From assembly GCF_003001935.1 (NCBI RefSeq), contig NZ_PVNG01000002.1, forward strand, positions 682,001 through 746,000: DNA of 64,000 nt. Direction: 5' to 3'. Position numbers and translations under genes: made by a program. This document shows, piece after piece, positions 4,277-63,647 of this stretch (its first letter is position 1; each line of letters starts with the position of its first letter). The DNA comes from Nonomuraea fuscirosea (GTDB lineage Bacteria; Actinomycetota; Actinomycetes; Streptosporangiales; Streptosporangiaceae). The notes beneath the pieces were generated by a model that saw nothing but the letters and a program-made list of their open reading frames with translations, was not told the origin of the DNA and did not search any database.

Positions 4277-4302
4277 ATTCTCTATATCTCATGTAGGAAA
4301 TG

Positions 4303-4331: not shown

Positions 4332-4338
4332 CATACGC

Positions 4339-7817: not shown

Positions 7818-7892
7818 GCCAGGGTCGGCGATGTTACCTCTTTCGGGGAGATGCGCGAAAGCTGCGCATCCCTGACACGCAGGAGGGAAAAC

Positions 7893-10793: not shown

Positions 10794-10810
10794 TCCCTTC
10801 CCTATCCGGC

Positions 10811-11140: not shown

Positions 11141-11230
11141 CGCCGTCCGGGCCCGTGCACGGGGCCGGTCTGCACCGCCAGGAGCGGCGGTGACCGGCGG
11201 TGGCGGGGGCTTGTGCGGCAGTCTGGAGGC

Positions 11231-12301: not shown

Positions 12302-12312
12302 CCTGAGGTCAC
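12298..12312. terminator. Hairpin between convergent genes
   Basis: GTGACC-TGA-GGTCAC overlaps the kinase stop and sits 4 bases from the end of the convergent secreted-protein gene. A stronger 11-bp stem (12261-12271 with 12278-12288, loop of 6) lies just inside the kinase 3' end. No T-tract follows, as is usual in actinomycetes. Confidence 0.5.
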
Positions 12313-12315
12313 GTC

Positions 12316-12747
12316 CTAGTAGATGCGGTGCTTGCTGCCGCAGTGGTCGAACTTGCCGCCCCAGCAGGTGAACGTGTAGACCTTCTTGATCCCCTTGCCG
12401 TTCCAGCTGCCGACGGTCTTGCCGTCCCAGGACCGGTTGAACTTGTGCCAGCCGCCGTTCTGGTAGAACTCGAACCAGATCCAGCCCTTCTTGCCGCCGC
12501 GCTTCTCGACGCCGTACCACTTCGTGTAGACCTTGCCGTGGGACTTCCAGGTCTTGCCGAAGGTGTAGGCCTTGCGGTCGCTGGAGAAGTACCTGCCCCA
12601 GTTGCCGAAGCTCGCGGTGCCGCTCTCGGCGGTGGCCACGGTGCCGGTGGCGGCGCTGGTGCTCGCCTGGGCGGTGGCCGGGACGAGGGCGAGGCCGGTC
12701 ATGGCCGTCGAGCCCGCTATGGCGGCGATCGCCAGGATCTTACGCAT
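12316..12747 (-). CDS. Small secreted aromatic-rich protein of unknown function
   Basis: A 143-residue protein with ATG at 12747 and GGGGAGG about 10 bases upstream. A signal peptide (MRKILAIAAIAGSTAMTGLA, likely cleaved after ATAQA) is followed by a Thr/Ser-rich stretch. A compact basic domain follows, very rich in Trp, Tyr, Lys and Gly (WGRYFSSDRKAY, KWYGVEKRGGKKGWIWFEFY) with two cysteines near the end (TCWGGKFDHC) that could form a disulfide. No enzyme motif. Repeated aromatic beta-strand-like segments suggest a small beta-sandwich or a wall- or polysaccharide-binding protein. Confidence 0.75.
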   Translation of the reverse strand: MRKILAIAAIAGSTAMTGLALVPATAQASTSAATGTVATAESGTASFGNWGRYFSSDRKAYTFGKTWKSHGKVYTKWYGVEKRGGKKGWIWFEFYQNGGWHKFNRSWDGKTVGSWNGKGIKKVYTFTCWGGKFDHCGSKHRIY

Positions 12748-12892
12748 GTGGGTGTCCTCCCCTGTCGGTGCTGCCGGGTGGTCCGGCAAACAGGACAGTA
12801 CGGAGATCTGCGCCGCCCATCTGCGGAGGAATCCACACATCAAGAGTGACCGCCGACACACCTCACCGCTTGATCGATCAGGGCTCGGCCGG

Positions 12893-14167
12893 TCAGCGCT
12901 TGACGGAGAACGTCCGGTCCGCGGCGAACGGGACGAACGCCGGCTGCGCCGCCCTGGCCTGCGGCGCGGCCTGCCCGCACGCGGCCAGCAGGTAGTACTG
13001 GACGATGGCCACGTCTATGGGGCTCACCTGCGGGACGCCGTTCTCGTCGACCGTCTGGTACTTGGTCAGGTTCTGCCCGATGGACAGCTGGCGCTGACCG
13101 TCCTCGCTGGTCAGCGAGTCGGTGGCCATGCCGAAGACGCTGCCGCTGTGCCCCCAGAACCGGCCGCACGGCAGGTCGGTGGAGTAGAGGCCGAGGCCGT
13201 AGTTCAGCAGGCCGCCGCCGACGTTCACCGGCACCGTCTTCCGCATCTCGGCGAGCTGCTCCTGGCCGATCACCTCGCCGCGCAGCAGGGCCCGGTAGAA
13301 GCGGTTGAGGTCGTCCATCGTGGAGGTGAGCGCGCCCGCCGTCGAGATCCACGACATGTTGTAGACGCTGTAGTCGCGCGGCGGGTCGATGAGGCCGAAC
13401 ATCGACTCGTACGCCTTCGAGTGCGGCCCCGGGATGAGCGGCGTGCGCGGGAACGACGTGTGCCGCAGCCCGGCCGGGCGGATGACGTGCTGGGTGATGT
13501 ACCGCTCCGCGTCCATGCCCGTCACCTTCTCCAGCAGCAGGCCGGCCAGCACGTAGTTGGTGTTGGAGTACACGCCGGGCGTCGTCCCGGGCTCGCCGGT
13601 CGGCGCGGCGCCGAGGCCCAGGCGCACGAGCTCCAGAGGGGTGAACGTACGCAGCCGGTTGTCGTCGAGGCTCTTCGTCGAGCCCTCCAGCAGCGACGGG
13701 AACGCCGGACCCACCAGGTCGGCGATGTGGCTCGTGTGGTTGAGCAGCATCCGTACGGTGATCTTCGTGCCGCGCTCGCCCGGCACGACGTCGGGCAGGT
13801 AACGGCCGACGGGGGCGTCCAGCTCGATCTTGCCCCGGGCGACCTGCTGGAGCACGGCCACCGCGGTGAACGTCTTGGTGATGCTGCCGACCCGGTGCAC
13901 CATGTCCGGCCGCACGGGGCGGCGGGTGCGCACGTCGGCCACGCCGGAGGCGCCCCGCCAGCTCTGGCCGCCGTCACGGGTCTCGGTGTAGACGCCGTAC
14001 ATGCCCGCCTCGTGCACCGCGTTCAGCGACTCGCGCAGCGCCTGCCGGTCGAGCCCGGTCCCGGCCGTGGCCGGCTGGGCGGGAAGTGCGGCGAGCAGCA
14101 GGCCGGCGGCGGTGGCGGCGGCCGTCCGGCGGACGGCGGTGTTCTTTCCCAGCTGACGAATGACCAT
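12893..14167 (-). CDS. Secreted class C serine hydrolase (beta-lactamase/DD-carboxypeptidase fold)
   Basis: The 424-residue protein has a Sec signal peptide (residues 1-36, ending AALPAQPATAG). The serine beta-lactamase-fold motifs are all present: SxxK as S95-I-T-K98, YxN as Y200-S-N202, and HxG in WGHSGSVFG. Likely an extracellular D-alanyl-D-alanine carboxypeptidase or esterase of the S12 family. Class C beta-lactamases have YAN and KTG; YSN plus HSG points to the peptidase/esterase branch. Downstream, at 12863-12874, is a partial copy of its 3' end (TCACCGCTTGA against TCAGCGCTTGA). Confidence 0.9.
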   Translation of the reverse strand: MVIRQLGKNTAVRRTAAATAAGLLLAALPAQPATAGTGLDRQALRESLNAVHEAGMYGVYTETRDGGQSWRGASGVADVRTRRPVRPDMVHRVGSITKTFTAVAVLQQVARGKIELDAPVGRYLPDVVPGERGTKITVRMLLNHTSHIADLVGPAFPSLLEGSTKSLDDNRLRTFTPLELVRLGLGAAPTGEPGTTPGVYSNTNYVLAGLLLEKVTGMDAERYITQHVIRPAGLRHTSFPRTPLIPGPHSKAYESMFGLIDPPRDYSVYNMSWISTAGALTSTMDDLNRFYRALLRGEVIGQEQLAEMRKTVPVNVGGGLLNYGLGLYSTDLPCGRFWGHSGSVFGMATDSLTSEDGQRQLSIGQNLTKYQTVDENGVPQVSPIDVAIVQYYLLAACGQAAPQARAAQPAFVPFAADRTFSVKR

Positions 14168-51507: not shown

Positions 51508-52524
51508 CTAGGGGTGCGGGTGGGTGGAGGGGCGTAGTTCGAGGTCGATCGGGTGAACGCGTTCCGTCCCGGGCTCGGCGGTGCCTGACAGGAGTTCGAA
51601 CAGCAGCTCGGCGCAGCCGGCCCCGGCCTCCCGGGGGCGCAGGTCGATCGAGGTGATCGGGGGGTCGGCCATCCGGGTGGCGGCGCTGTCGACGCAGGAG
51701 GCGAGGAGCACGCCGGAGCCCGTCTCCCGCACCATGGGCGCCACCTCGGTCGCCGCCCCGGCGGGAGCGCACACCAGCGCGTCCACCGCCTCGCCGTCGC
51801 TGGACTCGGGCGCGAGCAGGGTGCGGGCGGCGGCGCGGATCTCCTCGCCGGTGGCGTCGAAGGAGACGCGGCGGACCCGGGGGACGATGTCCTTCGTGGC
51901 GCACCACTCCAGGTAGCCCCGGTGCAGGCTGGCGGCCCAGTCGCTTTCGTCGCCGGCCACGATGAGGCCGGGGCGGACGGAGCCGGCCGTGCTGAGGTGG
52001 TCGAGCAGGCGGTGGAGCATCGGCGCGTGTTTCGACCACACCACCCCGTCCGCCTGCCGCGCCCCCGGGAAGCGTTCGCAGGAGACGGTCGGCAGGCCGG
52101 TGGCCATCAGGCTCTCCACCACCGGGTCGCCCCCGAGCGGGTCGCCGAGCACCAGGCCGTCGACGCGTGGCGGGCGGGAGCGGCGCTGGCCCGAGGTGAT
52201 CAGGGTGACGTCGTAGTCGTGCCGCGCCGCCTGTTCGACCACGCCGAAGACGAACGACATGTAGTAGGAGGAGCGGGTCAGCACCTCGGGCACGTGCAGG
52301 CCGATCGTCCCCGTGCTGGCCTTACGCAGGTGGCGGGCCGAGCCGTTGGGTACGTAGCCGAGCCGTTCGGCGACCCGCGCGACCGTCTCGCGGGTGCGCT
52401 CCGAGACCCGGCCCGAGCCGCGCAGGGCGTCGGAGGCGGTCGTCTTGGAGACGCCGGCTTCCCTGGCGACGGTGAGGATCGTGACCGGCTCGTCTGCTTG
52501 CACGCCCTGATGGTACTGGTGCAT
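51508..52524 (-). CDS. LacI-family regulator of the amine/amide catabolic operon
   Basis: 338 residues. HTH: VTILTVAREAGVSKTTASDA (about 14-33), hinge GSARHLRKAST; effector domain with IGLHVPEVLTRSSYYMSFVF and SIDLRPREAGAGCAELLFEL. It is divergent from the copper amine oxidase operon, with an 18-bp perfect palindrome in the shared region, so it is the obvious repressor of that operon. Inducer unknown, presumably the imported amine or amide rather than a sugar. Confidence 0.88.
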   Translation of the reverse strand: MHQYHQGVQADEPVTILTVAREAGVSKTTASDALRGSGRVSERTRETVARVAERLGYVPNGSARHLRKASTGTIGLHVPEVLTRSSYYMSFVFGVVEQAARHDYDVTLITSGQRRSRPPRVDGLVLGDPLGGDPVVESLMATGLPTVSCERFPGARQADGVVWSKHAPMLHRLLDHLSTAGSVRPGLIVAGDESDWAASLHRGYLEWCATKDIVPRVRRVSFDATGEEIRAAARTLLAPESSDGEAVDALVCAPAGAATEVAPMVRETGSGVLLASCVDSAATRMADPPITSIDLRPREAGAGCAELLFELLSGTAEPGTERVHPIDLELRPSTHPHP

Positions 52525-52690
52525 TTTCCGTCCTCGTCCCCTGGCTGTGCCGGGCTCCCGGCCCCTCGGTCCCCGGCCTGCGCGCCCAGCCGGAGCGCGG
52601 CGTCCCCGTCCTGCTTCCGTTAAGGATCTGTTTCGCCTGGGCCTCAGGTCTTGTGCCTCGCGGCCGTCGCAATTAAGTTAGCGCGAAACT

Positions 52691-52708
52691 TGCCGGAACG
52701 TTCCGGCA
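52691..52708. promoter_or_regulatory. 18-bp perfect palindrome, LacI operator candidate
   Basis: TGCCGGAACGTTCCGGCA with an AACGTT core lies 18 bases before the TTG start of the amine oxidase. A partial half-site GGAACGTTGC sits at the start codon itself (52721-52730), so binding could block initiation directly. Confidence 0.7.
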
Positions 52709-52726
52709 GCAGAAAGGGGCGGAACG

Positions 52727-54637
52727 TTGCACCTGTCCACCGGGAAGCACCCCCACCCTCTCGACCCGCTCGCCGCGCGGGAGATCGACGAGGTCAGACG
52801 GATTCTGGTGGCCGAAGGGCTGCTGACGGAGACGGCCCGGGTGGCCTATCTCGGTCTGGAGGAGCCGCCGAAGGGCGAGGTGCTGGCGTACCGGCCGGGC
52901 GACCCCGTCACTCGCCGGGCCCGTGCGTTCCTGCTCGACCTGGCCACCGAGGCGGCGCTGGACGTGGTCGTCTCCATCGGCGCGGGCCGGGTGGAGTCGC
53001 GCGAGCCGATCGACCCCGCGATCGACGGCCAGGTGCCGATGCTGGACGAGGAGCACGCGCTGGTCCGGCGGGTGCTGCGCGCGGACGCCGCCTGGGCCGA
53101 GGCGCTGGCCAGGCGCGGCATCGACGACCCGCAGGGCGTCTACCTGGCCGCGCTCAGCGCCGGCCACTTCGGGCTGGCCGAGGAGGAGGGACGGCGGGTG
53201 GCCAGGGTGCTGGCGCACGTCATGCCCACGCCGGAGAGCCTGCCCTGGGCCCACCCGGTGGACGGCCTGGTCGCGTACGTGGACCTGGTCAAGGGCGAGG
53301 TCCTGGAGATCGTGGACACCGGCCCCCAGCCGATCCCCCAGGAGTCCGGCGACTACGGCCACGGCCCCTTCCGCACCACGCAGAAACCCATCCACATCAC
53401 CCAGCCGGACGGCCCCAGCTTCACCGTGGACGGCCCGCTGGTGCGGTGGGAGAAGTGGAGCCTGCGCCTCGGCTACGACATGCGCGAGGGCCTGACACTG
53501 CACCGGATCGGGTTCGAGGACGGCGGCCGGGTCCGCCCGATCGTGTACCGGGCCTCGGTGGCCGAGATGGTCGTCCCGTACGGCGACCCGAGCCCGATCC
53601 GCTTCTGGCAGAACTACTTCGACACCGGTGAGTACCAGCTCGGCAAGCTGGCCAACTCCCTCGAACTCGGTTGCGACTGCCTCGGCGAGATCACCTACTT
53701 CGACGCCGTCGTCACGGACGGCGCCGGCCTGCCCAAGGTGATCACGAACGCGATCTGCATGCACGAGGAGGACTACGGCGTGCTGTGGAAGCACACCGAC
53801 CCGGCCAACGGCTCCAGGGAGACGCGCAGGCAGCGCCGCCTGGTGATCTCGTTCTTCGTGACGGTGGGCAACTACGACTACGGCTTCTACTGGTACCTCT
53901 ACCTGGACGGCACCATCGAGCTGGAGGTCAAGGCCACCGGCATCGTCTTCACCGGCGCCTACGACGAGCGGGCCGCGCCGTACGCGTCGGAGGTGGCGCC
54001 GGGGCTGGCGGCCCCGTACCACCAGCACCTGTTCGGGGCCCGGCTGGACATGACGGTGGACGGCGTGGCCAACGCCGTGGACGAGGTCGAGGTGGACATC
54101 CCGCCGGCCGGCCAGGACAACCCGTACGGGAGCGTCATCCGCCGCGCCGTCACCCGCCTGCGCACCGAACGCGAGGCCGTCCGGGACGCCGACCTGAAGG
54201 CGGAGCGCACCTGGCACGTCGTCAACCCGGACGTGCGCAACCGGCTGGGCCGCCCCGTCGGCTACGCGCTGCACGCCGAGGGCAGGCCGACGCTGCTGGC
54301 CACGCCGGGGTCGAGCATCCACGAAAGGGCCGAGTTCGCCACCAGACATCTGTGGGTCACCCGCTACCACCCCGCAGAGCGCTATCCCGCCGGAGACCTG
54401 GTGAACCAGCATCCCGGCGGCGCGGGCCTGCCCGCCTACACCAGGGCCGACCGCGACATCGACGGGCAGGACATCGTGCTGTGGCACACGTTCGGCCTGA
54501 CGCATTTTCCCCGCACCGAGGACTGGCCGATCATGCCGGTCGACACCTGCGGGTTCGTCCTCAAGCCGGTCGGGTTCTTCGACCGCAACCCCACGCTCGA
54601 CGTACCGCCGAGCGCCGCCGAACGTTCCTGTCACTAG
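52727..54637 (+). CDS. Copper-containing primary amine oxidase
   Basis: 636 residues, TTG 52727. It oxidises primary amines to aldehydes, releasing ammonia and hydrogen peroxide. The cofactor motif N382-Y383-D384 (VGNYDYGFYWYLYLDG) supplies the tyrosine that becomes topaquinone. The catalytic base is D299 (YFDTGEY). Copper ligands are H432 and H434 (HQHLFG) and H593 (THFPRTEDWP). The N2/N3 domains precede the catalytic domain in the usual order. No signal peptide, so intracellular, consistent with acting on an imported or internally released amine. First gene of the operon. Confidence 0.95.
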   Translation: MHLSTGKHPHPLDPLAAREIDEVRRILVAEGLLTETARVAYLGLEEPPKGEVLAYRPGDPVTRRARAFLLDLATEAALDVVVSIGAGRVESREPIDPAIDGQVPMLDEEHALVRRVLRADAAWAEALARRGIDDPQGVYLAALSAGHFGLAEEEGRRVARVLAHVMPTPESLPWAHPVDGLVAYVDLVKGEVLEIVDTGPQPIPQESGDYGHGPFRTTQKPIHITQPDGPSFTVDGPLVRWEKWSLRLGYDMREGLTLHRIGFEDGGRVRPIVYRASVAEMVVPYGDPSPIRFWQNYFDTGEYQLGKLANSLELGCDCLGEITYFDAVVTDGAGLPKVITNAICMHEEDYGVLWKHTDPANGSRETRRQRRLVISFFVTVGNYDYGFYWYLYLDGTIELEVKATGIVFTGAYDERAAPYASEVAPGLAAPYHQHLFGARLDMTVDGVANAVDEVEVDIPPAGQDNPYGSVIRRAVTRLRTEREAVRDADLKAERTWHVVNPDVRNRLGRPVGYALHAEGRPTLLATPGSSIHERAEFATRHLWVTRYHPAERYPAGDLVNQHPGGAGLPAYTRADRDIDGQDIVLWHTFGLTHFPRTEDWPIMPVDTCGFVLKPVGFFDRNPTLDVPPSAAERSCH

Positions 54638-54651
54638 AGGAGAAGAGGCCC

Positions 54652-56274
54652 ATGCGTAACCTACGCCTGGCCTGCGGTGTCGCGGCCGCCCTGCTGGCTT
54701 CGGCCTGCGCCGCCACCGGAACGACCACCAGCCCGACGGCCGCGGCGCAGCAGAGCGCCGCCCCCGGCTACCTCGCGCTCGCCGACCAGTCCCTCCCTTC
54801 GGGAGGCACGCTCAACCTCCAGGTCCACATCGACAGCGGCGCCGCCACCGGGTACGACCCGCAGCTCGCCGACGTCGCCACCACCTGGCAGCTGCTGTCG
54901 CTGTCCTACGAGACGCTGGTCACGGTGGGCCCCGACTTCTCCGTGCAGCCGCTGCTGGCCGAGAAGTGGGACACGCCGAGCCCCACCGAGTACGTCTTCC
55001 ACCTGCGTAAGGGCGTCCGGTTCGCCAACGGCAGGGAGATGACGGCCGACGACGTGGTGGGCAGCCTCAAGCGGCTGCTGGCCTCCAAGTCGGTGTGGCG
55101 CGGGCAGCTCGGCCCGGTCAAGTCGGTGACCGCGGACGGCGACGGCGAGGTGAAGGTGACGCTGAGCGAGCCGTACACGCCGTTCCTGACGGCGCTGGCC
55201 AACGTGCCCGCGGCGGTGCTGCCGATGAAGGAGATCGACGACAAGTCGGTCGATCCGGCCACCACGCTGCTCGGCACCGGCCCGTACGTGGTCGAGAACC
55301 ACCGCCAGGACGTGTCGTGGGCGTTCAAGCGCAACGACCAGTACTGGAACAAGGGCAAGCCCGCGGCCGACGCGCTGAACATCACGATCGCCCCCGAGGA
55401 GGCCGCGCGCATCGCCGCGCTGCAGAACGGCAGCGCCGCCCTGGCGACCCTGGGCAACGTGGACTCGGCCACGATGCTGGCCGGAGCCGGGAACGTCCAG
55501 GTCGGTACGCAGGCCACGACGGACTTCTACTACCTGATGCTGAACAGCCTGAAGCCGGGCTCGAAGCTGGCCGACCCGAAGGTGCGCCAGGCCATCGCCA
55601 TCGCGCTGGACAACCAGCAGATCGCGGACGTCGCGCTGGGCGGCCAGGGCAAGCCGACCGCGATCACCCCGGCGGGCCTGCCCGGCGCCTGCGACCCGGC
55701 CGCGCTGCCGTCGGCGGCCAAGAGCGTGGACGACGCCAAGGCGCTGCTCGCCGAGGCCGGCGCGCAGGATCTGTCGTTCACGCTCACCATCTTCTCCACC
55801 GAGCCGGCCCCGGCGGTCGCGCAGGTGATCCAGCAGAACCTGCAGCAGGCCGGCATCACCGTCAAGATCGAGCAGATGGACGAGGCGAGCTGGTCGGGCA
55901 AGGTGTACGGCAAGGCGCCGGCCGACTTCGACGCCGCCCTGTCCTGGTTCGCCGGCTACGCCGACCCCGGCATGGTCACCAAGTGGTGGAACCCGGAGAC
56001 GGCCGGCTTCAACGTCGGCTTCATGAAGCCGGACAAGGAGCTGAACACGCTCATCGACGCGGCGGGCAAGGAGCCGGCCGGGCCGTCCAGGGATCAGGCG
56101 CTGACCGCCGTGTGCGCCAAGGCGGACGCGGACGCGCAGATGATCCCGCTGGTCACCCGCCCGGCCACGGTCGCGTTCAGGACCGACGCGCTCAGCCCGA
56201 GCCTGTACGCCACCGAGGGCTACGGCAACGTGCTGCGCCTGGTCGCCGACGCCCGCGTGAAGAAGACCCAATAA
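54652..56274 (+). CDS. Dipeptide/oligopeptide-type ABC substrate-binding lipoprotein (SBP_bac_5)
   Basis: 540 residues, ATG 54652 with GAGGAGAAGAGG upstream, 14 bases after the amine oxidase. Lipobox ends LLASAC (C19-C20 region). Family 5 landmarks: YDPQLADVATTWQLLSLSYE, the PTEYVFHLRKGVRFANGREM strand, LGTGPYVVENH, and WFAGYADPGMVTKWWN near the C-terminus. It binds the substrate outside the cell and delivers it to the two permeases that follow. The position after an amine oxidase suggests an amine-containing oligomer or peptide. Confidence 0.92.
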   Translation: MRNLRLACGVAAALLASACAATGTTTSPTAAAQQSAAPGYLALADQSLPSGGTLNLQVHIDSGAATGYDPQLADVATTWQLLSLSYETLVTVGPDFSVQPLLAEKWDTPSPTEYVFHLRKGVRFANGREMTADDVVGSLKRLLASKSVWRGQLGPVKSVTADGDGEVKVTLSEPYTPFLTALANVPAAVLPMKEIDDKSVDPATTLLGTGPYVVENHRQDVSWAFKRNDQYWNKGKPAADALNITIAPEEAARIAALQNGSAALATLGNVDSATMLAGAGNVQVGTQATTDFYYLMLNSLKPGSKLADPKVRQAIAIALDNQQIADVALGGQGKPTAITPAGLPGACDPAALPSAAKSVDDAKALLAEAGAQDLSFTLTIFSTEPAPAVAQVIQQNLQQAGITVKIEQMDEASWSGKVYGKAPADFDAALSWFAGYADPGMVTKWWNPETAGFNVGFMKPDKELNTLIDAAGKEPAGPSRDQALTAVCAKADADAQMIPLVTRPATVAFRTDALSPSLYATEGYGNVLRLVADARVKKTQ

Positions 56275-56276
56275 TT

Positions 56277-57245
56277 ATGCGGCTGCTGATGTGGTGGTCC
56301 GGCCGGGCGCTCAGCTCGGCCGCCACGCTGCTGGGCGTCTCGGTCCTCATCTTCGCCGCCGTACGGCTGATGCCGGGCGGCTTCGCGGAGACCGTGCTCG
56401 GGCCGTTCGCCACCGCCGAGCAGAAGGCCGAGCTGGCCGCCCGCTACGGGCTGGACCAGGCGGTCTTCCTGCAGTACGGGCACTGGCTCTCGGCCGTGGC
56501 GGGCGGCGACTTCGGCGTCTCCATGATCAGCCGCCAGCCGGTGGGCGCGGAGCTGCTGGCCCGGCTGCCGGTCACGGCCGAGCTGACGGTGCTGGCCGTG
56601 CTGGCGAGCGTGCTGGCCGGGGTGCCGCTGGGCGTGCTGACCGCCGTGCGCGCCCGCCCCGAGGGCGGCGGCGCGGCCGGGCGGCTGCTCAGCGGGCTGG
56701 GCGTCAGCGTGCCCGAGTTCGTGCTGGGCAGCCTGGTGGTGTTCGTCTTCTCCCGGTACGCTCTCGGCCTCAAGGTCGGCTCCTGGGTGCCGCTCACCCA
56801 GGACCCGGCGGCGAACCTGGCCACGATGATCCTGCCCGCGGCCGTCCTGTCGGTCTTCTCCATCTCGGTGACCGCCAGGACCACCCGCGACGCCGTCATG
56901 GGCGTGCTGGTCGAGCCGTACGTCACGGCCGCCGTCGGGCGCGGGGAGTCGCCCTGGTTCATCGTCAGGCACCACATCCTGCGCAACGCCGCCACCCCCG
57001 TGGTCACGCTGATCGGCACCACGACCGCGTACCTGCTGGGCGGCGCGCTGATCGTGGAGCACGTCTTCAACCTGCCCGGCGTCGGCTCCTACATCGTGCA
57101 GGCCGTCGGCCGCCGCGACTACGCGGTGGTGCAGGCCGGGGTGCTGCTGGCGGCCGGGGTGTTCATCGTGATGAACGTGCTCATCGACCTGCTGGTCGGG
57201 ATGCTCGACCCCCGGCTCGGCGTCATGGCGGGGAGGCGCTCGTGA
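56277..57245 (+). CDS. DppB-like ABC transporter permease
   Basis: 322 residues, about six TM helices. N-terminal VSVLIFAAVRLMPGGFAETV and the LLARLPVTAELTVLAVLASV helix are typical of DppB/OppB. The EAA loop reads TAAVGRGESPWFIVRHHILR. Starts 2 bases after the binding-protein stop, and overlaps the second permease by GTGA. Confidence 0.9.
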   Translation: MRLLMWWSGRALSSAATLLGVSVLIFAAVRLMPGGFAETVLGPFATAEQKAELAARYGLDQAVFLQYGHWLSAVAGGDFGVSMISRQPVGAELLARLPVTAELTVLAVLASVLAGVPLGVLTAVRARPEGGGAAGRLLSGLGVSVPEFVLGSLVVFVFSRYALGLKVGSWVPLTQDPAANLATMILPAAVLSVFSISVTARTTRDAVMGVLVEPYVTAAVGRGESPWFIVRHHILRNAATPVVTLIGTTTAYLLGGALIVEHVFNLPGVGSYIVQAVGRRDYAVVQAGVLLAAGVFIVMNVLIDLLVGMLDPRLGVMAGRRS

Positions 57246-58060
57246 GAAGACTGGATCGGCTGTCCATCGGCGGGCTGGTCACGCTGCTGGTCCTGGTGGT
57301 GTTCGCGCTGGGCTCGCTGATCGGGGCCGGCGGGGATCCGGACGCGATCGTCGGCCCCCGGCTGCAGCCCCCTGGCTCCGGCTGGTGGCTGGGCACCGAC
57401 AACCTGGGCCGCCCGGTGCTGCCGCGCGTCATGGAGGGCGTGGGCACGACGCTGCTGCTGTCGTCCGTCGCGGTGCTGGTCACGGCGGCGTTGAGCGCGA
57501 CGTTCGGCATCGTCGCCGGATACCGTGGCGGTTACCTGAACGAACTGGTGATGCGCCTGGTGGAAGTGCTCTACTCCTTCCCGGCCATCGTGCTGGCCAT
57601 CCTGGTCGCCGCCGTGCTCGGCCCCGGCCAGACGGCGGCGCTGGCCAGCATCGTGCTGGTGACGATCCCGCTGATGACCCGGCTGGTGCGGGCCGCCGCC
57701 GTGGCCGTCTCGCAGCGCGACTACGTCACCTCGGCCGTCATCAGCGGCGCCCGGCTGCCGCGCGTGCTCGTCCGGCACGTGCTGCCGAACGTGGCCGGCA
57801 CGATCGCGGTGCAGGGCACGTACGCGCTGTCGGTCGGCATCGCGGTCGAGGGCGGGCTGAGCTTCCTCGGCTTCGGGGTGCAGCCGCCGCAGGCCTCGCT
57901 CGGCGTGCTCATCCAGCAGGGCGGCACGTACATGATCGCCGCGCCCTGGCTGATCCTCGGCCCGGGGGTCGTGCTGGTGGCGGCGATCCTGGCGATCAAT
58001 GTGGTCGGCGACGGGCTGCGCGACCGGCTCGAACCCAGGGAGACGAGGACCTTGACGTGA
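57242..58060 (+). CDS. DppC-like ABC transporter permease
   Basis: 272 residues, GTG 57242 overlapping the previous stop. WWLGTDNLGRPVLPRVMEGV is the conserved DppC/OppC N-terminal motif, and SAVISGARLPRVLVRHVLPN the EAA loop. GGLSFLGFGVQPPQASLGVL is a further family landmark. Forms the heterodimeric channel with the DppB-like protein. Its stop overlaps the next ATPase (GTGA). Confidence 0.9.
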   Translation: MRRLDRLSIGGLVTLLVLVVFALGSLIGAGGDPDAIVGPRLQPPGSGWWLGTDNLGRPVLPRVMEGVGTTLLLSSVAVLVTAALSATFGIVAGYRGGYLNELVMRLVEVLYSFPAIVLAILVAAVLGPGQTAALASIVLVTIPLMTRLVRAAAVAVSQRDYVTSAVISGARLPRVLVRHVLPNVAGTIAVQGTYALSVGIAVEGGLSFLGFGVQPPQASLGVLIQQGGTYMIAAPWLILGPGVVLVAAILAINVVGDGLRDRLEPRETRTLT

Positions 58061-59022
58061 GCCTGCTCTCGGTACGGAATCTGGTGATCGACTATCCGCG
58101 CACCCGGGCCCTCGACGGCGCCGATCTGACCCTGGAGCAGGGGGAGAGCCTCGGGCTGGTCGGCGAGAGCGGATCGGGCAAGTCCACGCTCGGCTCCGCC
58201 GTCGGCCGGCTGCTGCCCACGTCGGCGCGGCGGACGGACGGGGAGGTGCTGGTCGCCGGGGAGCCGGTGTTCGAGCTGCCCGCCGCCCGGCTGCGCCACC
58301 TGCGCAGGAGACACCTCGGGTTCGTCTTCCAGGACCCGATCGCCTCGCTCGACCCGACCATGCGCGTCGGCGCCCAGCTCCGGCTGGTGCTCGGGCGCGA
58401 CGGCGACGTGCGCTTCCACCTGGGACGGGTCAGGCTGGACGACCCCCGGGTGCTGCGCGCCTACCCGCACCAGCTCTCCGGCGGTATGGCGCAGCGGGTG
58501 GCCATCGCGATGGCCATGGCCACCTCGCCCGAGCTGCTCGTCGCCGACGAGCCGACCGCCGCCCTGGACAGCCAGGTGCGCGAGGAGGTGTCGAACGTGG
58601 TGTTCTCGCTGGCCGCCGAGGCGGGCACGGGCATCCTGTGGCTCAGCCACGACCTGCCCGCCGTGGCCCGCCGCTGCGACCGGGTCGCGGTCATGTACGG
58701 CGGGCGCGTCGTCGAGAGCGGCCCCGCCCGCCGGGTGCTGGGCGATCCGGCCCATCCCTACACGGCGGCGCTGGCGGGCTCGGCTCCCGCCGCCGCGCCC
58801 CACGGCGTCCGGCTCCATCCGGTGCCCGGCCGCCCGCCCGTGCTGGAGGGCCCGGCCGCCGGATGCGCCTTCGCGCCGCGCTGCCCGTTCGCGGAGGAAC
58901 GCTGCGAGCACGAACGCCCGGTCCCGGTCCGCGTCCGCGAGCAGGACGTCCTGTGCCACCGGGCGGGAGAGCTGGAGGGCCGCCTGTCGCAGGGCGACGC
59001 CGTGTCGGAGGTGAAGGCGTGA
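58057..59022 (+). CDS. Oligopeptide-type ABC ATPase, DppD-like
   Basis: 321 residues, GTG 58057. Walker A GESGSGKST (about 36-44), Q-loop FQDPIASLDP, signature LSGGM, Walker B LLVADEPTAALD and H-loop WLSHD are all present. The C-terminal oligopeptide-transporter extension carries three of the expected cysteines (CAFAPRCPFAEERCEHE), which bind an iron-sulfur cluster in some DppD proteins. Coupled to both neighbours by 4-base overlaps. Confidence 0.92.
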   Translation: MSLLSVRNLVIDYPRTRALDGADLTLEQGESLGLVGESGSGKSTLGSAVGRLLPTSARRTDGEVLVAGEPVFELPAARLRHLRRRHLGFVFQDPIASLDPTMRVGAQLRLVLGRDGDVRFHLGRVRLDDPRVLRAYPHQLSGGMAQRVAIAMAMATSPELLVADEPTAALDSQVREEVSNVVFSLAAEAGTGILWLSHDLPAVARRCDRVAVMYGGRVVESGPARRVLGDPAHPYTAALAGSAPAAAPHGVRLHPVPGRPPVLEGPAAGCAFAPRCPFAEERCEHERPVPVRVREQDVLCHRAGELEGRLSQGDAVSEVKA

Positions 59023-59768
59023 TCCTCGAACTCGACGACGTCACCGTCACCTTCGCCGCGGGGCCGCCGTTCCGGCGCATCCACCTCGACGCGATGCGGC
59101 ACGTCACGCTGTCGGTCGCCGAGGGCGAGACGCTGGGCCTGGTCGGCGAGTCGGGCTCCGGTAAGACGACCACCAGCCGGGTCGCCCTCGGCCTGCAGCG
59201 TCCCACGGCCGGCACCGTCAGGTTCGGCGGGCGCCCGTTCCCCAGACGGCGGCGCGAGCTGGCCGGCCGCATGCAGGCCGTGCTCCAGCACCCGCACTGG
59301 TCGCTCAACCCGCGCATGCGCGTCGGCCAGAGCGTCGCCGAGCCGCTGGCGGTGCTCGGCCGCCTCGAAGACGGCCGCGCGGGCGACGCGGTCACCGAGG
59401 TGCTGGAGCAGGTCGGCCTGGAGGCGGCCTTCGCCGGCCGCTATCCGCACGAGCTGTCCGGCGGCCAGCGCCAGCGCGTCTCGATCGCCCGCGCGCTGGT
59501 CACCAGGCCGGGCTTCATCGTCTTCGACGAGGCCGTCAGCGCGCTGGACGTCTCCGTCCAGGTGCAGATCCTCAACCTGATCAAGGACCTGCAGGGCGAG
59601 TACGGCTTCAGCGCCCTGTTCATCTCCCACGACCTGGGCGCGGTGCGTTACGTCGCCGACCGCATCGCGGTCATGCGGGCGGGCGAGATCGTGGAGACCG
59701 CCGAGACGGCCACCTTCTACACCGCCCCTTCACACGAGTATTCGAAGCAGCTTCTGGAGGCCCTATGA
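59019..59768 (+). CDS. Oligopeptide-type ABC ATPase, DppF-like (short)
   Basis: 249 residues, GTG 59019. Walker A GESGSGKTT, Q-loop LQHPHWSLNP (Gln then His in place of Asp), signature LSGGQRQR, Walker B FIVFDEAVSALD and H-loop FISHD. It ends at HEYSKQLLEAL, so it lacks the usual 60-80-residue oligo_HPY cysteine-containing tail. The Walker B continuation is DEAVSALD where most have DEPVSALD. The partner DppD-like protein retains the tail. Confidence 0.9.
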   Translation: MILELDDVTVTFAAGPPFRRIHLDAMRHVTLSVAEGETLGLVGESGSGKTTTSRVALGLQRPTAGTVRFGGRPFPRRRRELAGRMQAVLQHPHWSLNPRMRVGQSVAEPLAVLGRLEDGRAGDAVTEVLEQVGLEAAFAGRYPHELSGGQRQRVSIARALVTRPGFIVFDEAVSALDVSVQVQILNLIKDLQGEYGFSALFISHDLGAVRYVADRIAVMRAGEIVETAETATFYTAPSHEYSKQLLEAL

Positions 59769-60778
59769 GAGACGACGCTGTGAGAGACGCTGTGAGTGCG
59801 GACCCGCGCCCGGCGACCCCGTCGGAGTTCGCGCCGGGCGGGCCGCGCAACGCGGACCTGCCGCTGACCCCGCAGCCCAGCCCCGGGCGCGCCTCGGTCG
59901 CGTTCGACCTGCCCGGCGTGTTCGTCGGCACGGCCGAGTACGGCGAGGGCCCCACCGGCTGCACCGTCGTCCACCTGCCCGCGGGCGCCCGCACGGCGGT
60001 GGACGCGCGCGGCGGCGCGGTCGGCATGAGCGGCGGCTACGACTTCAACCACGCGATCTGCCTGGCGGGCGGCTCGGTGTACGGGCTGGCCGCGGCGGCG
60101 GGCGTCAGCGACGAGCTGCTGGCCCGCCGGGACAACCGCACCAAGTGGGACGAGCTGCAGCTGGTGTCCGGGGCGGTGATCTACGACTTCTCCTGCCGCG
60201 ACACCGCCGTCTACCCGGACGCCGAGCTGGGCCGGGCCGCGCTGCGCAACGCGGTCGAGGGCGCGTTCCCGGTGGGCCGGTGCGGCGCGGGCCGGACGGC
60301 GAGCGCCGGCAAGGTGGACTTCGGCCGGGCGGAGTTCGCCGGTCAGGGGGCCGCGTTCGGCACGTTCGGCGAGGCCAAGGTGCTGGTGGCGACGGTGGTC
60401 AACTCGGTGGGCGCGGTGATCGACCGGCAGGGCCGGGTCGTGCGCGGCAACTACCACGCCGACCTCGGGGAGCGCCGCCACCCGAGCGCCGACTACGCCG
60501 CGGCGATCGGCGACGGCGCACCGTCCGTCATGGGCAACACCACGCTGACCGTGATGATCACCAACGTCCGGCTGACGGACGTGGAGCTGCTCCAGGTGGG
60601 CCGCCAGGTGCACAGCTCGATGCACCGGGGCATCCAGCCGTTCCACACGCTGACGGACGGCGACACGATGTTCGCGATGACGACCGACGAGGTCGAGCTG
60701 ACCGGCGTCAAGCCGACCGGCCTCGGCACGCTGGCCTCCGAGGTCGCCTGGGACGCGATCCTGAGCGCGGCGGAGTAG
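59765..60778 (+). CDS. P1-family (DmpA/NylC-like) self-cleaving Ntn hydrolase
   Basis: 337 residues, ATG 59765 overlapping the ATPase stop. The family core (GGYDFNHAICLAGGSVYGLA, TASAGKVDFGRAE, VATVVNSVGAVID) ends at MGNTTLTVMITN, where N268-T269 aligns with the Asn-Thr autocleavage site of NylC (nylon oligomer endo-hydrolase). DmpA-type aminopeptidases have Gly-Ser there. It should split into alpha and beta chains with T269 as nucleophile and hydrolyse a linear amide or D-/beta-amino acid peptide. Cytoplasmic. Confidence 0.85.
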   Translation: MRDDAVRDAVSADPRPATPSEFAPGGPRNADLPLTPQPSPGRASVAFDLPGVFVGTAEYGEGPTGCTVVHLPAGARTAVDARGGAVGMSGGYDFNHAICLAGGSVYGLAAAAGVSDELLARRDNRTKWDELQLVSGAVIYDFSCRDTAVYPDAELGRAALRNAVEGAFPVGRCGAGRTASAGKVDFGRAEFAGQGAAFGTFGEAKVLVATVVNSVGAVIDRQGRVVRGNYHADLGERRHPSADYAAAIGDGAPSVMGNTTLTVMITNVRLTDVELLQVGRQVHSSMHRGIQPFHTLTDGDTMFAMTTDEVELTGVKPTGLGTLASEVAWDAILSAAE

Positions 60779-60783
60779 CCGGG

Positions 60784-61380
60784 ATGTACACCTTTCCCCG
60801 CTACGCGGCCCCGGATCCGGCGCAGGTGGACCTGCTGGTCAGGGAGAACCCGTTCGCGCTGGTCGTGAGCGCCACGGACGGCGCGCCGGTGGCCACGCAC
60901 GTGCCCGTGATCCTGGAGGGCGACCACGTCGAGGGCGGCACGCTGCTCGGGCACCTGGCCCGCGCCAACCCGCACTGGCGCTCCTGGGAGTCTTCGCCGG
61001 AGGTGCTGGTGATCTTCCAGGGGCCGCACGGCTACGTCTCGCCCACCGTGTACGCCACCGACCCGGCCGTCCCGACCTGGGACTACGCGGCGGTGCACGT
61101 GACCGGCCGGCTGGAGCTGCTCGACGACGCCCTTGAGGTGGTGGAGCGCACGGTCGAGGCCGTGGAGTCGGGCCGCCGCCCGTCCTGGGAGGCGACCCCG
61201 GCCTCGCGGGAGAGGTTCCGCGCGTTGCTGCCGGGGGTAGTGGCCTTCCGGGTGCACGTGCGTACCGTGCAGAGCATGTTCAAGCTGAGCCAGGACATCG
61301 ACGCCGAGCGGTACGCCCGCGTCCGCGACTCCTTCGCCGCGGAGAACCCGCGGCTCGCCGACTTGATGGACAGGTCATGA
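60784..61380 (+). CDS. PaiB-like FMN-binding protein
   Basis: 198 residues of the FMN-binding split-barrel PaiB family. Landmarks: MYTFPRYAAPDPAQVDLLVR, ATHVPVILEGD, GHLARANPHWRSW, VIFQGPHGYVSPTVY, and FRVHVRTVQSMFKLSQD near the end. Family members are annotated as negative regulators or flavin-dependent proteins, originally from a Bacillus protease/sporulation locus; the biochemistry is poorly defined. Here it sits between two amide hydrolases in the same unit and overlaps the C45 gene by ATGA. Confidence 0.87.
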   Translation: MYTFPRYAAPDPAQVDLLVRENPFALVVSATDGAPVATHVPVILEGDHVEGGTLLGHLARANPHWRSWESSPEVLVIFQGPHGYVSPTVYATDPAVPTWDYAAVHVTGRLELLDDALEVVERTVEAVESGRRPSWEATPASRERFRALLPGVVAFRVHVRTVQSMFKLSQDIDAERYARVRDSFAAENPRLADLMDRS

Positions 61381-62441
61381 CATTTCCCTGCTTTACGTCC
61401 AGCCAGACCGACCCCCGGGCCCGCGGCAAAGAACTGGGCACCCATCTGCGCAAGCGCATCGTCGCCAACCTCACCGGCTACGGCGAGCTGTTCGCGGTGG
61501 CCGGCGCCACCCCCGAGCAGGTGCGCGCGTGGGGCGAGCGGGCGCTCGACCGCAGCGCCGCGTGGGCGCCGTCGCTGGCGGACGAGATGGCCGGGATCGC
61601 GGCCGGCGCCGGGCTGGACCCCTGGCAGGTCGCCGTGGTCAACGCCCGCACCGAGATCCTGGCCGGCATCGACGCGGTCGGCCACGGCGAGTGCTCGACC
61701 TCCGTCGTGCTGCCGCAGGACGGCCCGCCGCGTACGGTGCAGACCTGGGACTGGCACGACCACCTGCGTGACGCGCCGATGTTGTGGGAGCTGGAGCCGC
61801 GGCCCGGCCACGTCGTGCGCACGTTCACCGAGGCAGGAGTGCTGGCCAAGATCGGCGTCAACACGGCGGGCCTCGGCGTGCACTTCAACATCCTGCGCCA
61901 CGACGCCGACACGGCCGAGACCGGCGTGCCCGTCCACCTGATCGCCCGCCGCATCCTCGACGAGGCGGCCACCGTCGAGCAGGCCGCGGACATCGCCCGC
62001 TCGGCCCCGGTCTCCGCCTCCAGCGTCATCACGGCCGTGACCGCCGACGACGCGGCCTCGATCGAGATCTCACCGGCCGGGGTGGCCGTCATCCCGCCGG
62101 ACCCCGGCGGGGTCCTGCAGCACTGCAATCACTTCCTGGACGCGGACCTGGCGGCGGGGGAGCGGCACGCCACCGAGCGGCCCGGCACCTACGACCGGCT
62201 GCGGCACCTGCACGAGCACGTCGAGGAGCTCAGCGACCCCGACCTCAACGCGCGGGCGCTGGCCATGCTCGCGCACGCTCCCGGCGCCGCGCCCGTCTGC
62301 GCCCACCCCGACCTGACCCAGCCGCTCAACCAGCGCTGGGAGACGCTCGCCACGATCGGCCTCGACCTGCCCGCCGGGCGGCTGCGGGTGCACCAGGGCG
62401 GGCCGTGCCAGGTCACCGAGGCGACCTGGCAGACCTTCTGA
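61377..62441 (+). CDS. C45-family acyltransferase/amidohydrolase
   Basis: 354 residues, related to the acyl-CoA:6-aminopenicillanic acid acyltransferase and choloylglycine-hydrolase-like Ntn fold. The predicted nucleophile is C106 in GHGECSTSVV, exposed by autocleavage of the 105-residue propeptide (MTFPCFTSSQTDPRARGKEL at its start). TWDWHDHL, LAKIGVNTAGLGVHFNILRH and CNHFLD are core landmarks. Likely hydrolyses or transfers an N-acyl group. Last gene of the operon; the convergent dehydrogenase gene ends 18 bases on. Confidence 0.87.
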   Translation: MTFPCFTSSQTDPRARGKELGTHLRKRIVANLTGYGELFAVAGATPEQVRAWGERALDRSAAWAPSLADEMAGIAAGAGLDPWQVAVVNARTEILAGIDAVGHGECSTSVVLPQDGPPRTVQTWDWHDHLRDAPMLWELEPRPGHVVRTFTEAGVLAKIGVNTAGLGVHFNILRHDADTAETGVPVHLIARRILDEAATVEQAADIARSAPVSASSVITAVTADDAASIEISPAGVAVIPPDPGGVLQHCNHFLDADLAAGERHATERPGTYDRLRHLHEHVEELSDPDLNARALAMLAHAPGAAPVCAHPDLTQPLNQRWETLATIGLDLPAGRLRVHQGGPCQVTEATWQTF

Positions 62442-62443
62442 GC

Positions 62444-62469
62444 GCTCTGCTTGAAGGCTCTATTTGAAC
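62444..62469. repeat. 13-bp tandem duplication spanning the gcdH stop
   Basis: GCTCTGCTTGAAG (62444-62456) and GCTCTATTTGAAC (62457-62469) are abutted, 10/13 identical. On the minus strand the gene-side unit carries TAG and the outer unit CAG at the same position, as at eccB. Confidence 0.75.
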
Positions 62470-63623
62470 GCCGGGATGCCGGTGAGCGCCTTGCCGATGA
62501 CCAGCGAGTGGATCTCCGAGGTCCCCTCGTAGGTCAGCACGGACTCCAGGTTCACCGAATGCCTGATCACGGGGTATTCGAGGGTGATGCCGCTCGCTCC
62601 GAGCAGCGTGCGGCACTTCCTGGCGATCTCCAGGGCCTCGCGCACGTTGTTCAGCTTGCCCAGGCTCACCTGCTCGGGGGTGAGCGTGCCGGCCTCCTTC
62701 AGCCGGCCGAGGTGCACCGCGAGCAGCAGGCCCTTGCCCAGCTCCAGCGCCATGTCCGCGAGCTTCTCCTGGGTCAGCTGGTACGACGACAGCGGCCGGG
62801 CGAACACCTCCCGCTGGGCGGTGTAGGCGAGGGTGGCCTCCAGGCAGTCCAGCGCCGCCCCCATCGCCCCGAACACGATCCCGAACCTGGCCTCGTTCAG
62901 GCAGCCGAGCGGCCCGGACAGGCCCCTGGCGCCGGGCAGCATCGCCGCGGCCGGCAGGCGTACCCCGTCGAGCACCAGTTCGCTGGTCACGCTCGCGCGC
63001 AGCGAGATCTTGTGCTTGACGTCGTTGACGGTGAAGCCGGGGGTTCCCGCGGGGACCAGGAAGCCCCTGACGCCCTCGTCGGTGCGGGCCCAGACCACCG
63101 CCACGTCCGACACCGAGCCGTTGGTGATCCACAGCTTGGTGCCGTTCAGCACCCAGTCGCCGCCCTCGCGCTTGGCCGTGGTCCGCATGCCGCCGGGGTC
63201 GGAGCCGAAGTCGGGCTCGGTCAGGCCGAAGCAGCCGATGCGCTCGCCGGCCGCCATCGCGGGCAGCCACTCCTGCTTCTGCTCCTCGCTGCCGTACTTC
63301 CAGATGGCGTACATGGCCAGCGAGCCCTGCACCGAGACCAGGCTGCGCAGGCCGGAGTCGGCCGCCTCCAGCTCCAGGCAGGCCAGCCCGTACGAGACCG
63401 CGCCCATCCCCGCGCAGCCGTAGCCGTCGAGGTGCATGCCGAGCACGCCGAGGGAGCCGAGCGTGCGGGCCAGCTCCCGCGCGGGCAGTTCCCCGGCCTC
63501 GAACCAGCCGGCGACCTGCGGGCGGATCTCCCGGTCGCACACGAGCCTGACCGTGTTCCTGATCTCGCGTTCCTCGTCGGTCAACAGGGTGTCGAGGGCG
63601 AAGAGGGTGGTGGGTGCGATCAT
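62460..63623 (-). CDS. gcdH: Acyl-CoA dehydrogenase, glutaryl-CoA dehydrogenase type
   Basis: 387 residues, ATG 63623 with GGAGCGGGA upstream. FAD motifs CFGLTEPDFGSDPGGM and WITNGS are present, with the catalytic Glu in LTYEGTSEIHSLVIGKALTG. The segment LRSLVSVQGSLAMYAIWKYG matches the Arg-Ser/VSVQ substrate pocket specific to glutaryl-CoA dehydrogenase, and the C-terminus GKALTGIPAFK is typical. It converts glutaryl-CoA to crotonyl-CoA with decarboxylation in lysine, tryptophan or cadaverine breakdown. Divergent from an aldehyde dehydrogenase gene with a shared operator-like site. Confidence 0.88.
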   Translation of the reverse strand: MIAPTTLFALDTLLTDEEREIRNTVRLVCDREIRPQVAGWFEAGELPARELARTLGSLGVLGMHLDGYGCAGMGAVSYGLACLELEAADSGLRSLVSVQGSLAMYAIWKYGSEEQKQEWLPAMAAGERIGCFGLTEPDFGSDPGGMRTTAKREGGDWVLNGTKLWITNGSVSDVAVVWARTDEGVRGFLVPAGTPGFTVNDVKHKISLRASVTSELVLDGVRLPAAAMLPGARGLSGPLGCLNEARFGIVFGAMGAALDCLEATLAYTAQREVFARPLSSYQLTQEKLADMALELGKGLLLAVHLGRLKEAGTLTPEQVSLGKLNNVREALEIARKCRTLLGASGITLEYPVIRHSVNLESVLTYEGTSEIHSLVIGKALTGIPAFK

Positions 63624-63637
63624 TCCCGCTCCGTATT

Positions 63638-63647
63638 TTGGATCCAA
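63638..63647. promoter_or_regulatory. TTGGATCCAA palindrome, GntR (FCD)-type operator candidate
   Basis: A 10-bp palindrome in the 64-base gap between gcdH and the aldehyde dehydrogenase. ATCCAATAT occurs twice, at 63642-63650 and 63657-63665. The pattern resembles FadR/VanR-type GntR sites; no GntR gene is in the window. Confidence 0.5.

What the first reader, a model, noticed from the sequence alone, without database searches (positions are those of the whole stretch)
51508..62441. Coherent operon for uptake and breakdown of an amide-linked amine or oligomer
One divergent LacI regulator with an 18-bp palindrome controls, in near-continuous translational coupling, a copper amine oxidase, a full dipeptide-type ABC importer, a NylC-like Ntn hydrolase, a PaiB-like flavin protein and a C45 acyltransferase/amidase. 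Two different self-processing amide hydrolases beside an intracellular amine oxidase point to import of an N-acylated amine, polyamine conjugate or omega-amino-acid oligomer, hydrolysis, then oxidation of the amine. I know of no described pathway with this gene set.
Basis: partly seen in the sequence, partly recalled or inferred. Interest (0 to 1): 0.78.

Follow-up and report, generated by a model that had tools for sequence, protein, structure and literature searches.

The report
Siderophore-eating operon with nylon hydrolase
A soil actinomycete operon that carries a relative of the nylon-cutting enzyme NylC is predicted to import and digest iron-binding siderophores such as desferrioxamine, which would explain where a famous plastic-degrading enzyme likely came from.

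Summary
In detail: a divergent LacI gene and nine packed genes (copper amine oxidase, five-gene dipeptide-type importer, NylC-type hydrolase, PaiB-like protein, C45 hydrolase). Of 26 deduplicated NylC-type loci outside Nonomuraea, 24 have the importer, 18 C45, 10 the oxidase. A perfect 18-bp palindrome before the oxidase is in 23 of 33 genomes searched and in none of the 7 without a known oxidase operon.

Three results suggest a substrate. The PaiB-like protein is 80% identical to crystallised "N-hydroxylamine dehydratase (NohD)", which is 99.5% identical to the product of this operon in a relative. The right flank holds an aldehyde dehydrogenase, a glutarate-type CoA-transferase and glutaryl-CoA dehydrogenase. 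The two NylC-type loci without the importer lie by an iron-siderophore importer.

I read it as catabolism of a cadaverine-based hydroxamate siderophore, most likely desferrioxamine. Nylon hydrolase NylC (engineered variant) is 74-96% identical to the Leucobacter and Microcella versions, so nylon degradation probably borrowed this module. Nothing was assayed; substrate and reaction order are inferred.

The parts
51508..52524 (-). LacI-family regulator, divergent, presumed local repressor
   Evidence: Pfam LacI and Peripla_BP_3 over cut-off; LacI-like gene close by in 18 of 26 loci outside the genus
52691..52708 (.). 18-bp palindrome TGCCGGAACGTTCCGGCA, presumed LacI operator
   Evidence: one place per genome (two in one) in 23 of 33 genomes, none in the 7 without a known oxidase operon
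52727..54637 (+). Copper amine oxidase (TTG start behind AGGGG, start not proven); presumed to oxidise the amine end of the freed diamine
   Evidence: Cu_amine_oxid 521 bits; best solved relatives phenylethylamine oxidase, 802 bits; only one in the genome
54652..56274 (+). Substrate-binding protein, family 5
   Evidence: SBP_bac_5 258 bits
56277..57245 (+). ABC permease 1
   Evidence: BPD_transp_1 (scanned from two codons upstream); ATG at 56277
57242..58060 (+). ABC permease 2
   Evidence: BPD_transp_1
58057..59022 (+). ABC ATPase 1
   Evidence: ABC_tran and oligo_HPY
59019..59768 (+). ABC ATPase 2
   Evidence: ABC_tran
59765..60778 (+). NylC-type Ntn hydrolase (Pfam Peptidase_S58), presumed amide cleavage
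   Evidence: 405 bits to NylC; 60% identical, Asn266/Thr267, Lys189 and Asn219 equivalents conserved
60784..61380 (+). NohD homolog (FMN_bind_2), presumed N-hydroxylamine dehydratase
   Evidence: 347 bits over the full length to PDB 9oqs 'N-hydroxylamine dehydratase (NohD)'; 80% identical
61377..62441 (+). C45 autoproteolytic acyltransferase/hydrolase, presumed hydroxamate cleavage
   Evidence: NF040521 245 bits, cut-off 85; 75 bits to PDB 2x1d
62460..63647 (-). Glutaryl-CoA dehydrogenase (one of two paralogs of the genome), convergent neighbour
   Evidence: 629 bits to 3sf6; second paralog at G000:C8
63682..64000 (+). Start of an aldehyde dehydrogenase (479 aa) that runs out of the window, followed by class III CoA-transferase and GntR
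   Evidence: Locus L015; best NCBIfam matches are C5 semialdehyde dehydrogenases, below cut-off

Best explanation
This operon encodes a dipeptide-type importer, a NylC-type hydrolase, a C45 hydrolase, a close relative of N-hydroxylamine dehydratase NohD and a copper amine oxidase, and it is predicted to import cadaverine-based hydroxamate siderophores, most likely desferrioxamine, and would break them down as food. Shown: gene content, tight packing, a conserved palindrome, co-conservation across orders, the 80% match to NohD, and the glutarate-type flank. Inferred: the importer takes up the siderophore or its pieces. The NylC-type hydrolase cuts the succinyl-cadaverine amides, as NylC cuts -CO-NH-(CH2)5- in nylon oligomers. 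C45 cuts the hydroxamate and frees N-hydroxycadaverine. NohD dehydrates the NHOH end to an imine that falls to an aldehyde, the copper amine oxidase turns the NH2 end into a second aldehyde, the aldehyde dehydrogenase oxidises both ends to glutarate, and CoA-transferase plus glutaryl-CoA dehydrogenase carry it to crotonyl-CoA. Which hydrolase cuts which bond is a guess. LacI presumably leaves the palindrome when the substrate or a product is present.
For: NohD match: 347 bits full length; next named relatives are piperazate synthase (136 bits; abstract starts say that enzyme works on N5-hydroxyornithine) and PaiB (112 bits). Five-carbon route: GCDH; CoA-transferases of two relatives (L019, L093) whose best model is succinate--glutarate CoA-transferase (332-334 bits, cut-off 750); own ALDH whose best models are C5 semialdehyde dehydrogenases (431 and 429 bits, cut-offs 750 and 770). 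ALDH beside the operon in 17 of 19 Nonomuraea loci, the other two stretches ending before it (own copy seen in L015), and directly after C45 on the same strand in L065 and L070. In 7 Nonomuraea genomes with the GCDH but no NylC-type ortholog, ALDH is absent beside it in 6, and the seventh keeps C45 with an ALDH about 70 codons shorter. GabT, ALDH, GCDH and CoA-transferase all flank the operon in L084 and L081/L093. Siderophore-type importers beside NylC-type genes in L072 and L083, with only about 8 and 6 FecCD places in those two genomes.
Against: No assay. The main importer is of the dipeptide/nickel kind, not the siderophore kind. No iron box (TTAGGTTAGSCTAACCTAA, up to 3 mismatches) in the window or L083; the two in L072 are far from the genes. 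The oxidase's solved relatives are named phenylethylamine oxidases. The GCDH-CoAT-GntR set exists without the operon in Nonomuraea. Within 9.5 kb only 4 of 26 loci outside the genus show GCDH, and the NohD homolog is in 11 of 26. The two loci beside siderophore importers have neither a NohD homolog nor the oxidase, and L072's NylC-type protein has Asp for Lys189. CoAT and ALDH lie below their equivalog cut-offs. GabT, semialdehyde dehydrogenase and acyl-CoA dehydrogenase are also what PMC5408104 (whole text) predicts for the C6 nylon monomer, so only the GCDH and CoAT assignments speak for C5.
Confidence: 0.58

Rival explanations
1. Catabolism of a different hydroxamate or N-hydroxyamine natural product (for example an ornithine-type hydroxamate siderophore) by the same logic.
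For: The NohD match and the siderophore-importer neighbours do not specify the diamine; NohD-like and C45 genes occur in Leucobacter without the oxidase.
Against: GCDH and a glutarate-type CoA-transferase next door point to a C5 dicarboxylate, and NylC acts on pentamethylene amides.
Confidence: 0.17
2. Catabolism of simple cadaverine or 5-aminovalerate amides (acyl-cadaverines, peptides) with no N-hydroxy group.
For: Oxidase, ALDH, GabT, CoAT and GCDH near the operon.
Against: Leaves the NohD homolog and the second hydrolase type unexplained.
Confidence: 0.13
3. Uptake and breakdown of synthetic 6-aminohexanoate (nylon) oligomers as the selected function.
For: NylC is 96% identical to the Microcella version and that contig also holds a NylB-type piece; PMC5408104 predicts GabT, semialdehyde and acyl-CoA dehydrogenases for the monomer.
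Against: The operon is in many actinomycete species with a fixed palindrome, and the window's hydrolase is only 60% identical to NylC; a C6 acid would not feed glutaryl-CoA dehydrogenase; NohD has no role.
Confidence: 0.04
4. Catabolism of N-acylated aryl-ethylamines or beta-alanyl amines (phenylethylamine, tyramine, histamine, dopamine types).
For: Oxidase nearest to phenylethylamine oxidase; C45 includes insect Tan and S58 includes beta-aminopeptidases (both recalled).
Against: The flank and the NohD homolog point to a C5 N-hydroxyamine instead.
Confidence: 0.05

Closest known systems
NylC region of Arthrobacter pOAD2 and Agromyces (opp genes, nylC, hypothetical, nylB)
   Same: Five-gene oligopeptide-type importer next to NylC; genes listed in the Figure 4 legend of PMC7019077 (passages read). 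The Microcella contig L032 has importer, NylC at 96%, a short piece and a NylB-type piece. Recalled, not found in the library: the 1995 pOAD2 paper also reported a penDE (C45-type) homolog.
   Different: That region is described for nylon oligomers; the passages I saw mention no oxidase, NohD or LacI. The window's NylC-type protein is 60% identical and sits with NohD, C45, oxidase and a C5 flank.
NohD, N-hydroxylamine dehydratase (PDB 9oqs and others)
   Same: 80% identical over the full length; the crystallised protein is 99.5% identical to the gene of the L006 operon.
   Different: I know only the depositors' molecule name; no paper was found, so whether they placed it in a pathway is unknown to me.
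Deferrioxamine B degradation by Mesorhizobium loti LU (PMC5805875, whole text)
   Same: Bacterium uses deferrioxamine B as sole carbon source and cuts it to monohydroxamic acids.
   Different: A rhizobium; that text says the enzyme is most likely serine peptidase-like and names no gene.
Phenylethylamine oxidase (PDB 1av4, 1rjo; Arthrobacter globiformis recalled)
   Same: 802 bits over nearly the full length.
   Different: Substrate of the window enzyme untested.

Membership tests
NylC-type Ntn hydrolase (Pfam S58) | Asn/Thr autocleavage site (Asn266/Thr267 of NylC) | tested here: met
   Asn-Thr in 72 of 72 aligned rows, the window protein included; cleavage itself not tested
NylC-type Ntn hydrolase (Pfam S58) | Presumed catalytic Lys189 and Asn219 (named in PMC6021441, passages) | tested here: met
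   Both conserved in the window protein; Asn219 in 72 of 72 rows, Lys189 in 63 of 72
NylC-type Ntn hydrolase (Pfam S58) | Endo-hydrolysis of 6-aminohexanoate oligomers | not testable with these tools
   Needs an assay
NohD N-hydroxylamine dehydratase | Full-length sequence match | tested here: met
   347 bits, residues 1-198 to 1-198; 80% identity
NohD N-hydroxylamine dehydratase | Dehydration of N-hydroxylamines | not testable with these tools
   Activity known only from the PDB name
Copper amine oxidase, phenylethylamine oxidase type | NYDYG cofactor-tyrosine motif and copper histidines (roles recalled) | tested here: met
   GNYDYGFYWYLYLDG, HQH and THFPR stretches aligned to 1av4
C45 acyltransferase/hydrolase | NF040521 score over cut-off and a cysteine at the processing site | tested here: met
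   244.9 bits, cut-off 85; the Cys of GEC aligns with the Cys of the GC site of 2x1d (role of that Cys recalled)
Glutaryl-CoA dehydrogenase | Closest to solved GCDH rather than other acyl-CoA dehydrogenases | tested here: met
   Best six sequences are named GCDH (629 to 384 bits); first entry of another name 366 bits; no GCDH model over cut-off in NCBIfam; active-site residues not checked
Succinate--glutarate CoA-transferase | NF052585 equivalog cut-off | tested here: not met
   332-334 bits against a cut-off of 750 for the L019 and L093 proteins; best model, so works-like only
Iron-regulated siderophore uptake operon | Iron box near the promoter | tested here: not met
   None in the window up to 3 mismatches
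Desferrioxamine catabolic operon | Induction by, and growth on, desferrioxamine | not testable with these tools
   Bench test proposed

The most novel reading that the evidence does not exclude
The enzymes celebrated for evolving to eat nylon were already natural 'bio-nylon' eaters: NylC is an amidase of desferrioxamine-type siderophore catabolism, whose -CO-NH-(CH2)5- units match those of nylon-6, and the nylon plasmid's opp-nylC block is a transplanted siderophore-catabolism operon. The window holds a nearly complete version: importer, NylC, C45, NohD and amine oxidase under one LacI switch, with the exit route to glutaryl-CoA next door.
Probability: 0.42. Interest if true: 0.9.

Novelty: new variant of a known kind. 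Interest (0 to 1): 0.8.

Why it matters
The deferrioxamine-degrader paper read here names no gene for siderophore breakdown. This would give a complete, testable gene set, a use for NohD, and a natural origin for NylC, which is being engineered for polyamide recycling (abstract starts): the many diverged NylC relatives in these operons would be a ready source of enzymes selected on nylon-like chemistry.

Tried and rejected
Rejected: beta-alanyl-amine reading (from recalled Tan and BapA/DmpA), because flank and NohD point to a C5 N-hydroxyamine. Rejected as a test: presence of NIS siderophore synthetases (PF04183), found in 31 of 31 genomes with and without the operon, so uninformative. Iron boxes: nothing near the genes. 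NylB-like search (23 of 394 genomes, 26 matched places; 20 stretches holding 21 of these places were fetched): 6 of 20 stretches hold GabT-, CuAO-, CoAT- or ALDH-like genes, one of them behind a dipeptide-type importer, but in none did tblastn find the permease or binding protein of the L072 siderophore importer, so NylB gives only loose support. Remote S58 proteins (24 of 44 loci, at most 40% identical) show at most one or two remote importer-like hits and no C45, oxidase or NohD hit. Papers: searches listed none that I could see joining nylon hydrolases with siderophore breakdown or describing NohD; only the best-ranked titles and abstract starts were shown, and the library lacks most subscription papers, so this is no proof of absence.
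Full report
Setting. The window lies at C2:682001-746000 of a 12.18-Mb genome. The nearest named loci are Nonomuraea. The observed gene order is confirmed.

Anatomy. LacI (-) and CuAO (+) diverge around a perfect palindrome TGCCGGAACGTTCCGGCA at 52691-52708. From SBP to C45 five of seven junctions overlap by 4 bases; SBP to permease 1 has a 2-base gap and NylC-like to FMN_bind_2 a 5-base gap. CuAO probably starts at a TTG behind AGGGG and ends 14 bases before SBP.

Conservation within the genus. Among 59 genomes 12 of 35 same-genus relatives carry the NylC-type ortholog at 78-92% identity; 0 of 23 genomes from outside the genus have a match above 100 bits. All 12 carry the LacI to C45 order, one being cut by a contig end before C45.

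Conservation beyond. At E <= 1e-40 the hydrolase is in 23 of 297 family genomes and 8 of 394 class genomes; these samples overlap. The one genome-contig scan gave 44 loci, of which 20 are 58% identical or more: 11 Nonomuraea, one Streptosporangium, one Thermocatellispora, six Leucobacter and one Microcella MAG. I put 26 deduplicated loci from outside Nonomuraea through one script (partners sought within 9.5 kb): importer 24, C45 18, LacI-like 18, NohD/FMN 11, CuAO 10, GabT-like 6, CoA-transferase 5, ALDH 4 or 5 by query, GCDH 4, siderophore importer 2, NylB-like 2. Some GabT, ALDH and LacI hits are remote (about 30% identity). Losses and shuffles are seen: Thermocatellispora L028/L064 shows no C45 or FMN gene, L066 has CuAO and FMN on the opposite strand, L069 and L071 carry two tandem NylC copies, the six Leucobacter loci show no CuAO.

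Operator. The pattern KSCCGGAACGTTCCGGSM was sought in 33 genomes: 23 match, 22 at one place and one at two neighbouring places. In the 22 of these whose locus I fetched the site lies just before the oxidase gene (coordinates); G307 was not fetched, but its site lies 7 kb before its NylC-type gene. The 10 without a match are the 7 in which I know of no oxidase operon (G001, G009, G016, G162, G201, G206, G400) plus three oxidase bearers: G085 (16-bp core kept), G435 (changed ends) and G502. This reads as a dedicated local switch; binding by LacI is untested.

NohD. The FMN_bind_2 protein matches PDB entries named 'N-hydroxylamine dehydratase (NohD)' at 347 bits over its whole length, then an FMN-binding regulator (140), piperazate synthase (136) and PaiB (112 bits). 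The NohD letters are 80.3% identical to the window protein and 99.5% to the gene in L006. I found no paper on it; its activity is taken from the PDB name alone.

The five-carbon flank. Right of C45 is a convergent acyl-CoA dehydrogenase, 629 bits to an entry named glutaryl-CoA dehydrogenase and 385 bits to 1siq. Beyond it run ALDH, a class III CoA-transferase and GntR. Of 19 Nonomuraea loci, 17 show both GCDH and ALDH; the other two stretches end before them (the own copies are in L015). In a search of 31 chosen genomes all had a GCDH; 7 of the 15 Nonomuraea genomes without the NylC-type ortholog in that set have this paralog. In six of these the set is GCDH, CoAT, GntR without ALDH, and in the seventh (L087) a full-length C45 remains with an ALDH whose match spans about 70 codons fewer than the query, as if the rest of the operon had been lost. 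In L065 and L070 the ALDH follows C45 on the same strand. So ALDH travels with the operon, while GCDH-CoAT also stands without it. In L084 a GabT-like aminotransferase, GCDH, ALDH, CoAT and GntR flank the whole operon, and in L081/L093 CoAT, GabT, GCDH and ALDH do. A tree of 27 GCDH rows (one of 28, L086, left out for an in-frame stop) puts the operon-adjacent ones in three places: Nonomuraea with G693, three f21 genomes, and G435, a long branch whose place is unsure. Starred branches force at least five label changes, part of them inside Nonomuraea; 45 of 500 shuffles were as low. So adjacency arose or was lost more than once, but the test is weak. Contig lengths suggest that G693 is Phytohabitans rumicis and that G479 and G502 are Phytoactinopolyspora.

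Siderophore link. In L072 a LacI-like gene, a NylB-like hydrolase (199 bits to 6-aminohexanoate-dimer hydrolase), C45 and a NylC-type gene stand back to back with two FecCD permeases, an ATPase and an iron-compound binding protein. In L083 a LacI-like gene and a NylC-type gene lie 2 to 6 kb from a FecCD-type set. These are the only two of the 26 loci without the dipeptide-type importer. The two genomes hold 11 and 10 FecCD matches at about 8 and 6 places, so a random point would lie within 5 kb of one in about 1% of cases. The comparison was made after seeing the loci.

NylC. The sequence of an engineered NylC variant (5xyg) is 96% identical to the Microcella protein, 74-93% to six Leucobacter proteins and 60% to the window's. 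The six Leucobacter genes sit behind the same importer and before a C45 gene. The Microcella contig continues with a short permease-like piece and a NylB-type piece (168.8 bits over 101 residues) and ends there. PMC7019077 (passages and figure legend) says that in Arthrobacter and Agromyces opp genes lie in the same region as nylB and nylC. So the importer beside NylC is known; that it belongs to a widespread LacI-C45-NohD-oxidase operon is not stated in the passages I read.

Mechanism proposed. Import of desferrioxamine or fragments; amide cuts by the NylC-type enzyme; hydroxamate cut by C45; NohD and the oxidase convert the two ends of N-hydroxycadaverine to aldehydes; ALDH gives glutarate; CoAT and GCDH give crotonyl-CoA; succinate goes straight to central metabolism. 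This gives a role to every enzyme gene of the operon and flank. Desferrioxamine chemistry is recalled; a search listing (PMC8009421, title and abstract start) states that a cadaverine N-hydroxylase begins desferrioxamine B biosynthesis. PMC5805875 (whole text) says that a bacterium can live on deferrioxamine B and cuts it to monohydroxamic acids. All catalytic steps are untested.

Doubts. The importer is not of the siderophore kind, no iron box is present, the oxidase resembles phenylethylamine oxidases, GCDH is within 9.5 kb in only 4 of 26 loci outside the genus, the siderophore-linked loci lack NohD and oxidase, GabT, semialdehyde and acyl-CoA dehydrogenases are also predicted for the nylon monomer (PMC5408104, whole text), and NIS synthetases do not separate bearers from non-bearers.

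Noticed in passing
L078 (Sinorhizobium fredii plasmid), 4127-13398: aspartate decarboxylase panD, D-Ala-D-Ala ligase-like, amidase and S58 hydrolase genes near each other: may make and cut a beta-alanyl compound.
   Followed up: no
L076, L077 (Variovorax plasmids), around 6-14 kb: Same five-gene importer plus NylC-type gene (about 50%); in the annotated L076 also a second S58 gene, an RpiR regulator and an M81 peptidase; no C45 or oxidase hit.
   Followed up: partly
L069 9096-11104 and L071 5571-7579: Two tandem NylC-type genes between importer and C45.
   Followed up: no
L063 5779-10848: Importer and NylC-type gene broken into pieces in several frames: decaying or poorly sequenced copy.
   Followed up: no
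L031, L033, L036, first 3.6 kb: In Leucobacter the end of a second importer with its own C45 (35-36%) lies upstream of the NohD-like gene.
   Followed up: partly
L016 4315-11310 and L017 3480-10588: Another dipeptide-type importer set with a remote S58 gene behind it: importer plus S58 may be a wider theme.
   Followed up: no
L102, L105, L109, L110, L113, L120: NylB-like serine hydrolases in stretches with GabT, copper amine oxidase, arginase-family, CoA-transferase or ALDH genes.
   Followed up: partly
G000:C28:13397-14323: The genome holds a second, remote S58 protein (39% to the window's).
   Followed up: no
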